Made by a program: the position numbers and the translations under genes. Positions 45,415 through 51,258 of a stretch of 64,000 nt of DNA are shown piece by piece. Within the stretch, counting starts at the first letter, position 1. Each line of letters begins with the position of its first letter. The notes below the pieces were generated by a model. That model was not told where the DNA came from, ran no database searches, and was given only the letters and a program-made list of their open reading frames with translations. The stretch spans positions 62,001 to 126,000 of the forward strand of contig DAIDGQ010000012.1 in NCBI GenBank assembly GCA_027452215.1. The letters are read 5' to 3'. This DNA comes from Granulicella sp. Its GTDB lineage: Bacteria > Acidobacteriota > Terriglobia > Terriglobales > Acidobacteriaceae.

Positions 45415-45428
45415 AGGACAATAGTCCT
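45415..45428 (+). promoter_or_regulatory. Second palindrome abutting the IscR-like site
   Basis: AGGAC-AATA-GTCCT is a perfect 5-bp inverted repeat with a 4-bp centre, directly after the 25-bp IscR-like site. It repeats the GGAC/GTCC theme, so it may be a second regulator half-site or overlap the promoter. Confidence 0.4.
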
Positions 45429-45487
45429 TGGCGCGCATGTTTCACCTCCAACGGCCCCCGGCCCGCGCCCACGAAAGCAGAGGATCC

Positions 45488-47545
<2,058 letters not shown>

Positions 47546-47657
47546 CCCTTCCGAGCTATGTTTCGGGAGACTTTCATTGAAAAAAGATTCGGCACTGATT
47601 CGGTAACCGCTTTTAATGCGGTATGAAGCAGTCGCAGTTCGTCAAAGCAAATCAGTT

Positions 47658-48869
47658 CTACCCATTTCGAAGAGCCTGCCGAACTCGGTCACGCCAACTG
47701 TCGGTATGGAAGATTCTTGTAACTTGCCTTTGATACTCCATACGGATCTCTGCTTTGGTATGCGATATCATTTGCTTCCAATCCCCAGATAGAACATAGG
47801 TCGCGTTCTTTTCTATGGGTGACTCCAATATAACGCGGCTAGAGTTCGTAAATTCGTAAACTGCATAGCCCAGCCAGCCCTTCTTGCCCATATATGTGAG
47901 CTTAGGATTCAGCGACAGCATGTTTTCCAGTCTGCGCGGGTCGAATTGCGGTCGCGCCATACTCCTGGATGGCCGTGAGCGCCTCCAAATATGTTCAAAC
48001 TCATCTAAGAAGGCTCCATGGTCCGGGGGAAGTAGTTCGAACGGAAAGTTTATGAGGGGCGACCATGCTGTTCTTGCATCTTCAACCTTAGAATGGAGTA
48101 CGCTCAAATGCCTTTCCATATCAGGTAGCGGCAGTAGCACACAGCAGAATCTACAAGAAACCAAATTCTTGATCTTAGCTTCCAGTTTGGATTCTTTATC
48201 CGGGCTGATCTTGACGAATTTGCCGACCGTTGATTTTGTTTGCTTTTTTTCCCGTAGCTTTTGCTTTTTGCTGAGTTTTAGAGAGACGGGTTCCGTTGCC
48301 TTGTTCGTATGCGCCGGCTGCACAGATACTGCTCGATTCTGCCTCTCAAAGGGCATCTTGCAAAGTGAACAGGCAAACGTTTTAGGCGTTGGCCTGTTGC
48401 GGACTCGAAGCTGAAAGCTGTCTAAAAAGATCGGTAATTTCCGGCGATCGACGCTGCGATGGCATCCCGGGCAAATCACATGCTGTTTCTTCTCACGCTC
48501 ACCAGGAGCGAATGCGGCATTGGTTGATTCAATCTGGCCAGAACTGGCCACCCCCGAATCCCCAGAAACTCTCCCCCTCGACGAAACTATCGTTCCATGA
48601 TCTACGAATGCCTTCGGAATCAATCGACGTTTACGACTAGTGTCGAGCACCGAAAGATCGATCGATCTCTCTGGCAGGAACCTGCGTCCAACTAGGGACG
48701 TCCCATCTCGGCGTTGCCCAACTGCTTGTCCAAGGACCTTCGCCGCCGCCTCTTCGCCCAAAGACGATGGATGGGCCCTCCCAGCGGCCATTCCAACTAA
48801 TTTGTCATGCATCTGCCGAGATCTTCCGCCCGTTTCGGGTGCGAAATCGTTGGTTCTCGAACCGTTCAC
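47658..48869 (-). CDS. Unknown protein with zinc-finger-like Cys/His motifs, atypical base composition
   Basis: About 403 residues, no known family recognised. Seen: an N-terminal segment (LVGMAAGRAHPSSLGEEAAAKVLGQAVG), a CPGC...CSLC cysteine set (about 130-170), a Lys-rich stretch (SKKQKLREKKQTKS), and CRFCCVLLPLPDMERHLSVLH, a C2H2-finger-like motif. The C-terminal half is mixed alpha/beta. The DNA is clearly less GC-rich than its neighbours, with T runs, and it runs against the hscA-fdx direction, which points to acquisition by transfer. GTG 48869 with GAGG upstream was chosen; TTG 48872 and an internal ATG 48812 are alternatives. A DNA-binding or nuclease role is possible but unproven. Confidence 0.6.
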   Translation of the reverse strand: MNGSRTNDFAPETGGRSRQMHDKLVGMAAGRAHPSSLGEEAAAKVLGQAVGQRRDGTSLVGRRFLPERSIDLSVLDTSRKRRLIPKAFVDHGTIVSSRGRVSGDSGVASSGQIESTNAAFAPGEREKKQHVICPGCHRSVDRRKLPIFLDSFQLRVRNRPTPKTFACSLCKMPFERQNRAVSVQPAHTNKATEPVSLKLSKKQKLREKKQTKSTVGKFVKISPDKESKLEAKIKNLVSCRFCCVLLPLPDMERHLSVLHSKVEDARTAWSPLINFPFELLPPDHGAFLDEFEHIWRRSRPSRSMARPQFDPRRLENMLSLNPKLTYMGKKGWLGYAVYEFTNSSRVILESPIEKNATYVLSGDWKQMISHTKAEIRMEYQRQVTRIFHTDSWRDRVRQALRNG

Positions 48870-49053
48870 CAAGAAGCCTCATGTAAGCAGTAATTGCTTC
48901 ACTATATGCTCATTGGTTCTGAGGCGAAGGTCGACTCATTTTGCCGAGCGATCCCGGACGGGAGAATAGCTGTATGGTTGTTGAACCTAAGGTTGGCGAC
49001 TTACTCCGCCACGTCGCACTCTTCACCAGGATCCCGCGATCCACCCGCAAGCA

Positions 49054-49113
49054 CTAAACTGGAAGAGCTATGTCAGACAACGAAACCCCTCGCCCCTGAA
49101 TCGACTTCTCCAA
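49054..49113 (+). pseudogene. Truncated duplicate of the ferredoxin gene 5' end
   Basis: Bases 49068-49113 align base for base with 49632-49677, the real start of the ferredoxin gene: the first 23 bp are identical and 18 of the next 23 match. Looser similarity continues upstream to 49054. The copy has its own ATG (49070) and GGAAGAG ribosome-binding site but stops after nine codons (MSDNETPRP). It is a relic of fdx left upstream of the DUF4160-DUF2442 cassette. Confidence 0.85.
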
Positions 49114-49147
49114 CGGGGTCCAAAACTGAAGCCATAGAAGGTACAGC

Positions 49148-49384
49148 ATGCCAGTTGTCTTGCGAGTCGGCCCCTACGCTTTCTTATTCTTCAGCAATGA
49201 AAGTAACGAGCCCCCGCATATCCACGTCGAGCGAGATGACAATATGGCAAAGTTCTGGCTCGATCCCGTCCGAAATGCGGCAAATCATGGCTTCCGGAAC
49301 CACGAACTTAACGTCATACTGAACTTGGTGAAAGAAAATCGAGATCTGTTTCTGGAGCGTTGGGATGCATACTTCAATGGTTGA
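49148..49384 (+). CDS. DUF4160 family protein
   Basis: A 78-residue product: PVVLRVGPYAFLFFSNESNEPPHIHVERDD and AKFWLDPV...NHGFRNHELNVILNLVKENRDLFLERWDAYF are the DUF4160 core. Genes of this family are nearly always followed by a DUF2442 gene, as here, and the pair is usually listed as a toxin-antitoxin-like module; activity is not established. GAAGG precedes ATG 49148. It overlaps the next gene by up to 20 bp. It sits between a relic copy and the intact copy of the fdx start. Confidence 0.88.
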   Translation: MPVVLRVGPYAFLFFSNESNEPPHIHVERDDNMAKFWLDPVRNAANHGFRNHELNVILNLVKENRDLFLERWDAYFNG

Positions 49385-49607
49385 GCTGGATGCAAGCGCC
49401 GTAGACGTGAGCACCGATGAGCAAACTCTCCGGGTCGTCCTGGCCGACGGACGTGAACTCAGCGCCCCGCTCATGTGGTTTCCTCGCCTGTTTTCAGCCA
49501 CCGCCGAACAACGTTCCAAGTGGCGTCTCATGGGACATGGCATAGGAATCGCCTGGGATGAACTGGATGAACATCTATCCGTAGCCGGTCTCCTTCGGCA
49601 ACACTGA
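49365..49607 (+). CDS. DUF2442 family protein
   Basis: An 80-residue product: VDVSTDEQTLRVVLADGRELSAPLMWFPRL...RSKWRLMGHGIGIAWDELDEHLSVAGLL is the DUF2442 fold, often the partner of DUF4160 and related to antitoxin-like NE0471 N-domains. ATG 49365 (GGAG seven bases upstream) overlaps the DUF4160 gene by 20 bp; ATG 49377, overlapping by 8 bp, is the alternative. Both show tight coupling. Its stop is 27 bp before fdx. Confidence 0.85.
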   Translation: MHTSMVELDASAVDVSTDEQTLRVVLADGRELSAPLMWFPRLFSATAEQRSKWRLMGHGIGIAWDELDEHLSVAGLLRQH

Positions 49608-49633
49608 CTCTCTGCCCTAGAATAGAAGTTGCT

Positions 49634-50065
49634 ATGTCAGACAACGAAACCCCTCTCCCCGAAGTCGACCTCTCCAAGCCCCCCGCCCCAAACATGGTCC
49701 GCGTTACCTTTGAGCCCGAAAACAAAACCGTCGAGTTCCCCTTCGACACCCTCCCCTATGACGGCCACGGCCAGCCCATGTCCTTCCTTGACGTCGCCGA
49801 AAACTACGGCATCTTCCTCGATCACGCCTGCGGTGGCGTCGCCGCCTGCACCACCTGCCACATCTTCCTCAAGAAGGGCGCCGAAGGAGTCTCCGAACCC
49901 GAGGACCTCGAGCTCGATCGCCTCGAACTCTCCCCCGGCCTCCAGCTCAACTCCCGCCTCGGCTGCCAGTGCGTCATCGAGAAGCCCGGAACCTACGTAG
50001 CCGAGATCCCCGCCTGGAACAAAAACTACGTCCAGGAAGGCAAGCCCGCCGCCATCAAAAAGTAG
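49634..50065 (+). CDS. fdx: [2Fe-2S] ferredoxin of the ISC type
   Basis: A 143-residue electron carrier. The cluster motif is Cys66-x5-Cys72-x2-Cys75...Cys111 (HACGGVAACTTC and RLGCQC), the adrenodoxin/Isc-Fdx spacing. It should supply electrons for Fe-S assembly with HscA, whose gene would normally be next to it but lies 2.1 kb upstream. An N-terminal extension of about 20 residues and a C-terminal tail with EIPAWNKNYVQEG are family features of acidobacterial forms. The ribosome-binding site (TAGAAG) is weaker than that of the relic copy upstream. Confidence 0.92.
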   Translation: MSDNETPLPEVDLSKPPAPNMVRVTFEPENKTVEFPFDTLPYDGHGQPMSFLDVAENYGIFLDHACGGVAACTTCHIFLKKGAEGVSEPEDLELDRLELSPGLQLNSRLGCQCVIEKPGTYVAEIPAWNKNYVQEGKPAAIKK

Positions 50066-50148
50066 CCACCGTCCGGCCAACCTGCCGGGCCCATTTTGGG
50101 ATGTCCATCCCGCACCGGCGTCAAATCCGGCGTCTCAGACCCCGCGTG

Positions 50149-50188
50149 TCCCGAACCTTCCCTCAGTCACGCGGCTTGCAACCCAAGA
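50149..50188 (+). repeat. 40-bp inverted repeat, left copy
   Basis: This 40-bp stretch downstream of fdx is identical to the reverse complement of 55545-55584. Neither copy is a hairpin by itself. Together they flank 5.4 kb that hold the sigma operon, the RNase H fusion and the TolC-type gene. Confidence 0.95.
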
Positions 50189-50226
50189 TCCTGCTGAACA
50201 CGAACAATTTCACTCATTTTCGCTGG

Positions 50227-51258
50227 TCACGCCGCCATCGGCTGACTGCAGCGAATCTCCGGCCACTCCAGCTCGGAGTGCCGTTTCGCCTCTGGAATCA
50301 ACGTGATGGTCTGCTCATGCTTGTCCCGTAGCACCGTCAGCACCACCCCACGCCCTCTACCCGCATGCAACCGCTTTACCCAGTCCGCAGTCGACCTAAC
50401 CACAATAGAATCAACACGTAAGACCACATCCCCGGCGCGAATTCCAGCCCCAGCCCCCGGACTATTCGCCACCACCGTCTCCACCAGCAACCCCCCACCC
50501 GTCGACGACCCGAAAAACTCCGCCAACTGAGGCTCCATCGCCTCCAGTCCGATCCCGGTAAATGGCGTATTATGTATCATTTGCAACAAGAATCCAGGCC
50601 CCTTGGAAGACCCGCCCCCAGCCCCTGGCGGCACGTCATATCCCTCCACCGCCGCACCCACCACGGGATCCCCCTCATCCGTCAGCCGATCCGGCTCCGC
50701 CATCCTCGCCAGAGCCTCCCTCTCCACCTCCCCGCGGTACGCAAGTTGTGCGTTTACAGTAACTTGCTTGCCTCCCCGTATCACTGCCAGGGTGACCGCC
50801 GTCCCCACTCCAGCGTCATGAATCATCCGCCGCAGCCCATCCGCGCTGCTGATCATCTGCCCATTCAAACTCACAATCACATCATGCGTCCGCAGCCCCG
50901 CCTTCCCCGCCGGTCCGTCATGATCCACCATCATCACCTCAACCCCGCGTCCACCCGCTAAGTGAAGAGAAGAAACCTGCTTATCGCTCAAATCCTGAAA
51001 CAGAATCCCGAGATACCCATGCGCATGAGGAGGAATCCCCCGAGGCGATGCCAGATGCGATCCACCACTCGACAGGCTCTCACTTTGTTTTGCAGTCTTG
51101 TGATCAACCCCCTCTGCCCGCCCCGTCCGCACAATCAGAAACAGCGCCAACCCGCACGCAAGTCCAACATTCCATAGAGTGAATGCTCCCGCACGCCGCC
51201 CCCCTGCCGCCCCACCGAATTCGTTCGTATGTCTCATCACCATTCGAAGCATGCCCAT
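50227..51258 (-). CDS. Periplasmic protein with two PDZ domains
   Basis: A 343-residue product with one N-terminal membrane anchor (LWNVGLACGLALFLIVRTGRA). PDZ 1 (about 80-170): GYLGILFQDLS, MMVDHDGPAGKAGLRTHDVIVSLNGQ. PDZ 2 (about 235-325): GGGLLVETVVANSPGAGAGIRAGDVVLRVDS. No protease domain is present, so it is probably a sensor or scaffold rather than a Deg protease. Its ATG shares a base with the stop of the anti-sigma gene (TAATG), which indicates coupling to that operon. Confidence 0.85.
   Translation of the reverse strand: MGMLRMVMRHTNEFGGAAGGRRAGAFTLWNVGLACGLALFLIVRTGRAEGVDHKTAKQSESLSSGGSHLASPRGIPPHAHGYLGILFQDLSDKQVSSLHLAGGRGVEVMMVDHDGPAGKAGLRTHDVIVSLNGQMISSADGLRRMIHDAGVGTAVTLAVIRGGKQVTVNAQLAYRGEVEREALARMAEPDRLTDEGDPVVGAAVEGYDVPPGAGGGSSKGPGFLLQMIHNTPFTGIGLEAMEPQLAEFFGSSTGGGLLVETVVANSPGAGAGIRAGDVVLRVDSIVVRSTADWVKRLHAGRGRGVVLTVLRDKHEQTITLIPEAKRHSELEWPEIRCSQPMAA

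What the first reader, a model, noticed from the sequence alone, without database searches (positions are those of the whole stretch)
49054..49677. Broken duplicate of the fdx start brackets a DUF4160-DUF2442 cassette
Bases 49068-49113 and 49632-49677 align without gaps: 23 identical bases and then 18 of 23. The left copy has the better ribosome-binding site but stops after nine codons; the right copy is the intact ferredoxin gene. Between them lies only the DUF4160-DUF2442 pair. The simplest reading is that the pair entered within the fdx 5' end and carried or caused a partial copy that rebuilt the gene. This would be an insertion route that keeps an essential gene intact, with the cassette placed in its operon. 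Family names are known; the mechanism is inference.
Basis: partly seen in the sequence, partly recalled or inferred. Interest (0 to 1): 0.75.

Follow-up and report, generated by a model that had tools for sequence, protein, structure and literature searches.

The report
Ferredoxin-gene stub beside a toxin-antitoxin pair
A broken copy of the start of a ferredoxin gene sits just before a small toxin-antitoxin-like gene pair, and comparison with related bacteria suggests it is the scar of an ordinary unequal exchange of DNA between neighbouring genes rather than a special way of inserting genes.

Summary
The window is from a Granulicella genome. The closest relative, UBA5172, has the same arrangement and a similar joint, so an assembly artefact is unlikely. 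[quoted passage not shown] The pair is an old resident of the hscA-fdx interval: it directly follows hscA, with no fdx copy, in two other genomes of the genus and (hscA tail read by eye) in one of another genus. After fdx codon 14 the UBA5172 stub runs into NAVED-stop, 18 nt before DUF4160; hscA tails before such pairs read S(T/V)ED-stop, 17-19 nt before it. None of 69 other DUF4160 sites shows this, though an unanchored test was not significant. A joint from fdx start to hscA end is what tandem duplication or unequal exchange leaves, not what insertion with copying predicts. Stub and intact gene carry different upstream types, favouring exchange between two haplotypes. Gene-derived repeats flank the pair at 3 of 71 sites (two related fdx sites, one groEL), so this is no property of the cassette. 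Real, explicable, modest interest.

The parts
45428..47545 (+). hscA-like Hsp70 gene; its 3' end reads N-S-T-E-D-stop
   Evidence: ORF and Pfam HSP70 654 bits; sequence
47658..48872 (-). 404-aa antisense ORF of unknown family between hscA and the stub
   Evidence: ORF; no Pfam, PADLOC or NCBIfam match; no tblastn match at E <= 1e-4 in the loci held other than the window's own
49035..49069 (+). upstream of the stub, with TAAACT at 49055-49060; resembles the upstream of the single fdx of G020 and G001
   Evidence: blastn 49035-49113 to L113 79.5%, 49046-49113 to L114 74.6%
49070..49111 (+). fdx stub: codons 1-14 of fdx, frame closed by TGA at 49097
49112..49147 (+). joint and spacer: decayed hscA-tail-like end (stop at 49127-49129) and 18 nt before DUF4160
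   Evidence: comparison with L033, L034, L044, L211 and 69 other sites; the hscA origin is inference
49148..49384 (+). DUF4160, DhiT-like putative toxin
   Evidence: Pfam PF13711; NCBIfam toxin_DhiT only 15.7 bits of 100 needed
49365..49607 (+). DUF2442, DhiA-like putative antitoxin, overlapping DUF4160 by 20 nt
   Evidence: Pfam PF10387
49608..49633 (+). upstream of intact fdx with -10-like TAGAAT (49618-49623); resembles the G014 upstream
   Evidence: the promoter scan finds this one site where 1.7 are expected by chance
49634..50065 (+). intact fdx, [2Fe-2S] ferredoxin
   Evidence: Pfam Fer2; TIGR02007 fdx_isc 72.1 bits, below its 132.1-bit cut-off

Best explanation
The stub is the novel joint of an unequal exchange. 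The DUF4160-DUF2442 pair, a DhiTA-like toxin-antitoxin operon, already lived between hscA and fdx. A segment consisting of the hscA tail, the pair and the fdx start (about 0.56 kb) was joined behind codon 14 of an fdx start, either by tandem duplication in one chromosome or, more likely, by recombination of incoming hscA-pair-fdx DNA with a resident fdx, perhaps at the shared CCAA. The resident fdx start stayed as a stub; the intact fdx came with, or was completed by, the segment. Later the stub and the fdx start were homogenised in part, the pair was swapped for another allele in one lineage, and the stub decayed in the window. Shown: duplication, shared arrangement in UBA5172, hscA-linked pairs without stub, two upstream types. 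Inferred: the hscA-tail origin of the joint, the direction of exchange, the conversion and the swap.
For: Same stub and similar joint in UBA5172. Pair directly after hscA without fdx copy in G025 and G015 and after an hscA-like tail in G414 (by eye); G015 is an hscA-pair-fdx haplotype without stub, with 151 nt between pair and fdx. Joint: stop 18 nt before DUF4160 preceded by V-E-D in L033; hscA-linked pairs have a stop at 17-19 nt preceded by (T/V)-E-D; 0 of 69 other sites. DUF2442 of the window, G013, G025 and G015 form a clade, support 99, but G013's pair groups with G015's (99 for DUF4160, 100 for DUF2442), not with the window's: alleles appear to be exchanged. Stub upstream matches G020 and G001; the intact gene aligns with G014 contiguously through the end of DUF2442. 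Within-genome copies (39/45, 43/45) are closer than the two stubs (37/45). G349 shows a groEL-end stub inside an evident tandem duplication (four blocks in order, spacing 530-579).
Against: No remnant of a second pair is detectable left of the stub in the window or L033, which counts against in-place tandem duplication. An unanchored test of the joint against the hscA tail was not significant (p 0.04-0.30), and the window's flank as a whole is not distinctive (10, 3 and 37 of 69 null sites score as high; for L033 1, 7 and 0 of 69); the case rests on L033 and on an anchored motif chosen after seeing it. G013's hscA is not on its contig. The upstream p values (0.002-0.008) are uncorrected for 13 comparisons each, L033's stub upstream also matches G014 at p 0.0175, and L033's intact-fdx upstream matches nothing. 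No genome seen has hscA, the pair and the 23-26 nt pair-fdx spacing together without a stub. G025's pair-linked hscA is a fragment at a contig end, and that assembly has another full hscA.
Confidence: 0.58

Rival explanations
1. One reading: the pair inserted into the fdx 5' end and brought or caused a copy of the start that rebuilt the gene.
For: Stub keeps one fdx upstream type, seen at single fdx genes, and the intact fdx has another; the duplication covers just the start.
Against: The pair sits beside hscA without any fdx copy in relatives; hscA-like tail in the joint; no recurrence at most DUF4160 sites scored; no integrase or transposase among the six genes of 45428-51258 tested.
Confidence: 0.17
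2. Pure tandem duplication in one chromosome of hscA tail-pair-fdx start, then loss of the left pair. This is the less likely form of the best explanation, and its odds are part of those given there.
For: Predicts the joint seen; G349's groEL locus is a clear tandem duplication.
Against: No left pair remnant detectable; stub upstream is not the DUF2442-adjacent type.
Confidence: 0.15
3. The stub is a kept leader: a borrowed fdx promoter and start that drives the toxin-antitoxin pair by translational coupling.
For: In L033 the stub is an open 19-codon frame ending 18 nt before DUF4160; a -10-like TAAACT precedes it.
Against: In the window the frame is cut at codon 10 and has drifted; the promoter scan finds no match there. 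It does not explain origin.
Confidence: 0.08

Closest known systems
DhiTA type II toxin-antitoxin (DUF4160 toxin, DUF2442 antitoxin), Dickeya dadantii; PMC8198452, passages read
   Same: Same two Pfam domains, same unusual order with the toxin first, overlapping genes
   Different: NCBIfam DhiT model gives 15.7 bits of the 100 needed; activity untested here; overlap 20 nt against 3
Persistence Enhancing Module of Thermus plasmids (DUF4160/DUF2442); PMC12724237, passages read
   Same: Same domain pair and order; with the second gene deleted no transformants were obtained there
   Different: Plasmid-borne and tested; here chromosomal, between iron-sulphur genes
Homology-facilitated illegitimate recombination; PMC6382021, passages read
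   Same: One end joined by homology, the other at a few shared bases, would give stub plus intact gene
   Different: No direct evidence of uptake here; the short CCAA is only inferred
Integrative elements that rebuild a gene end, such as SXT in prfC (recalled, not looked up)
   Same: Leave one broken and one intact copy of a gene end
   Different: Need an integrase and a defined attachment site; none seen here among the genes tested

Membership tests
DhiTA-like type II toxin-antitoxin | DUF4160 and DUF2442 domains | tested here: met
   Pfam 64 and 70.7 bits, both above cut-off
DhiTA-like type II toxin-antitoxin | toxin gene first, overlapping or adjacent antitoxin gene | tested here: met
   49148-49384 then 49365-49607
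DhiTA-like type II toxin-antitoxin | NCBIfam equivalog toxin_DhiT NF048015 | tested here: not met
   15.7 bits against a cut-off of 100: not shown to be the Dickeya equivalog, so the claim here is DhiTA-like, not DhiTA
DhiTA-like type II toxin-antitoxin | toxicity neutralised by partner, autoregulation | not testable with these tools
   needs expression
Unequal exchange / tandem duplication joint | joint from the downstream gene's start to the upstream gene's end | tested here: inconclusive
   anchored test 0 of 69; unanchored p 0.04-0.30
Unequal exchange / tandem duplication joint | second copy of the segment, or pair-less partner haplotype | tested here: inconclusive
   no second pair; G020 and G001, without a pair at fdx, share the stub's upstream
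Integrase-type element rebuilding a gene end | recombinase gene with the element | tested here: not met
   only the two DUF genes lie between the repeats; the antisense ORF beside the stub has no family match
Cassette-specific insertion with gene-start copying | gene-fragment repeats at independent DUF4160-DUF2442 sites | tested here: not met
   3 of 71 scored sites, two of them the related fdx sites

The most novel reading that the evidence does not exclude
DhiTA-like pairs in Acidobacteria settle beside essential chaperone and iron-sulphur genes and are bordered by copies of those genes' ends, which serve RecA as sites for swapping pair alleles or for clean removal, so that an addiction module and an essential gene are exchanged as a unit between species.
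Probability: 0.1. Interest if true: 0.6.

Novelty: new member of a known kind. Interest (0 to 1): 0.32.

Why it matters
It shows how a toxin-antitoxin pair can be moved and swapped next to a housekeeping gene without breaking it, leaving a readable scar. If the haplotype-exchange reading holds, gene-end stubs become markers for tracing recombination of toxin-antitoxin alleles between species. It also corrects a tempting reading, that the cassette carries its own gene-rebuilding insertion route.

Tried and rejected
Cassette-specific insertion: scored at 71 distinct DUF4160 sites (of 77 rows, 3 had too little flank and 3 were repeats of the same site; one of the 71 has no detected DUF2442). With 600-nt flanks six reach 48: window, L033, L122, L124, L131, L133. 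By reading the sequences, L122 is a decayed tandem copy of DUF2442, and L124 and L133 look like dispersed intergenic repeats; only fdx and groEL are gene ends. With 1.3-kb flanks L236 (59) and L251 (56) also pass; I did not identify those repeats. The sites are the best-scoring ones plus 20 more that I picked, not all matches. Controls: random positions 5 of 729, HicA sites 1 of 30 (two placements each), DUF4160 sites of the phylum search 1 of 30 (gene starts placed approximately).

Joint by unanchored alignment to the hscA tail: not significant; replaced by the anchored comparison, whose motifs were chosen after seeing the sequences. Left-over second pair: none detectable. RNA family at the site: none. 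tRNA near the fdx site: none. Defence-library match of the pair: none. Solved relatives: none for DUF4160; for DUF2442 two weak ones (2x8n, E 0.006; 3k8r, E 0.035). Sister relation of window and UBA5172: the fdx tree does not resolve it (support 70-71); it rests on protein identity (fdx 95%, PDZ neighbour 71%). Papers: no paper of the library held DUF4160 with fdx, or Granulicella with hscA; the 8 papers listed of 419 were not relevant by title.

Full report
Check of the observation. In the own assembly, 59% complete, the stub query matches only itself and fdx. Across the pair the local score is 74, against a mean of 21.5 and a maximum of 27 in 20 shuffles; 5 of 729 control positions reach 48. 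The gene names hold: Hsp70, DUF4160, DUF2442, Fer2. The antisense ORF at 47658-48872 matches no Pfam, NCBIfam or PADLOC family.

Setting. In one search, 26 of 28 genomes of the genus (own included) have this fdx. In 9 of the 25 relatives with fdx, hscA ends 12-111 bp before fdx. In others the interval is open: 640 bp in G015, 1.6 kb in G027, 2.8 kb in G007, about 4 kb in G025, G008, G004 and G003, 8 kb in G012, 11.4 kb in G001; in G020 the two genes lie about 30 kb apart on one contig. For G013, G014, G017, G018, G019 and G023 I saw no linked hscA. In the compact genomes L011, L012 and L014 the hscA stop codon is part of a -10-like TAAAAT or TAGAAT before fdx, so fdx may have its own promoter and tolerate inserts; this is inference.

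The pair in this interval. It is present in the window, UBA5172 (G013), G025 and G015, with a DUF2442 remnant in G014: 5 of 26 genomes; the whole-genome search places the other DUF4160 matches of the genus elsewhere. In G025 and G015 it directly follows an hscA stop and no fdx copy is found; in G025 that hscA is a fragment at a contig end and another full copy exists. In G414, of another genus, the pair follows a tail that I read as hscA. DUF2442 of the four genomes forms a clade (support 99) with G414 next (98); within it G013 pairs with G015 (100, and 99 in the DUF4160 tree) and not with the window. The DUF4160 tree does not resolve the window's place (nodes of 23 and 57), and short pieces stand for G013's DUF2442 (46 aa) and G025's DUF4160 (49 aa). 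Yet window and UBA5172 share the stub, a similar joint and 77% identity over 49039-49269. The pair alleles have probably been exchanged. The pair is damaged in relatives: the DUF2442 match is split between frames in L033, the DUF4160 match in L034; these are metagenome assemblies, so sequencing error is possible.

The joint. After fdx codon 14 the stub of L033 reads N-A-V-E-D-stop and the window, read in the frame of the stop at 49127, N-G-V-Q-N-stop; both stops lie 18 nt before DUF4160. The hscA-linked pairs of L034, L044 and L211 have (T/V)-E-D-stop at 19, 17 and 17 nt. Of 69 other DUF4160 sites, 6 have a stop at 17-19 nt and none ends in E-D; the anchored nine-base match is 9 in L033, 7 in the window, and at most 7 (one site) in the 69. 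Against this, the unanchored test gave p 0.04-0.30, and the whole flank of the window is equalled by 10, 3 and 37 of 69 sites against L034, L044 and L211, that of L033 by 1, 7 and 0. If the joint is fdx start to hscA end, it is the joint that unequal exchange makes. The window's own hscA end contains CCAAC and fdx contains CCAAG at the join, a possible four-base overlap.

Two haplotypes. The stub and its upstream align with the single fdx of G020 (79.5% over 83 columns) and G001 (74.6% over 71); the intact fdx aligns with G014 without a break through the end of DUF2442 (74.7% over 221). Upstream-only scores agree (p 0.007, 0.002, 0.008, uncorrected), but L033's right copy matches nothing and L033's left copy also matches G014 at 0.0175. 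G014 and G020 are sisters (91 in fdx, 99 in hscA), so both upstream types occur within one sister pair. The coding starts are closer within a genome (39/45, 43/45) than between the stubs (37/45), which one conversion event could explain. I therefore prefer recombination between a pair-bearing and a pair-less haplotype over in-place duplication, which should have left a second pair; none is detectable.

Generality. Of 71 distinct DUF4160 sites scored, 6 have flanking repeats of score 48 or more within 600 nt, and 3 of these are copies of a neighbouring gene: the two fdx sites and groEL in G208. In the genus of G208 (45 genomes searched), groEL-end stubs also bracket a 94-aa ORF (L304), a 119-aa ORF (L306, G208's own second site) and a tRNA-Gly gene (L305). 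In L305 four blocks repeat in the same order with spacings of 530-579 nt, with two tRNA-Gly genes: a tandem duplication. Gene-end stubs can thus be scars of duplication or exchange with quite different cargo.

What the pair does. [quoted passage not shown] coli (PMC8198452, passages) and to make Thermus plasmids persist (PMC12724237, passages); a survey lists the same domain pair as toxin-antitoxin in a marine genome (PMC12654330, passage). The window pair has the same domains and order but is far from the DhiT model (15.7 of 100 bits); function here is inferred. Verdict: a real scar beside a member of a known kind of toxin-antitoxin pair; modest interest.

Noticed in passing
L304 121-1250, L305 900-2400, L306 1415-2587, L310 2248-3549: Partial copies of the groEL 3' end bracket different small cargo downstream of groEL in one acidobacterial genus: an ORF of 94 aa, tRNA-Gly, an ORF of 119 aa, and a DUF4160-DUF2442 pair.
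   Followed up: partly
L308 1535-1993 (G222): Between groEL and DUF2442 a tRNA-Gly gene stands where DUF4160 lies in G208; no DUF4160 match is found there.
   Followed up: no
window 47658-48872, minus strand: 404-aa ORF with CxxC-like motifs (by eye) and no family match, between hscA and the stub; no match in the other loci held.
   Followed up: no
L049, just after hscA (gap before fdx 1589 bp): The last bases of hscA are repeated in inverted order directly behind its stop, an 18-nt arm that would form a hairpin (by eye).
   Followed up: no
L114 4363-15778, L115 485-3312, L119 3860-5448, L043 966-5000: The hscA-fdx interval of several relatives holds similar antisense genes with an RCYACHS (c-type cytochrome-like) motif or its near relative, so part of the interval's content is shared rather than freshly inserted (by eye).
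   Followed up: no
L011, L012, L014 upstream of fdx: In compact genomes the hscA stop codon overlaps a -10-like TAAAAT or TAGAAT placed before fdx.
   Followed up: no
L236 and L251: Flanking direct repeats of score 59 and 56 around DUF4160-DUF2442 pairs appear when 1.3-kb flanks are used; their nature was not determined.
   Followed up: no
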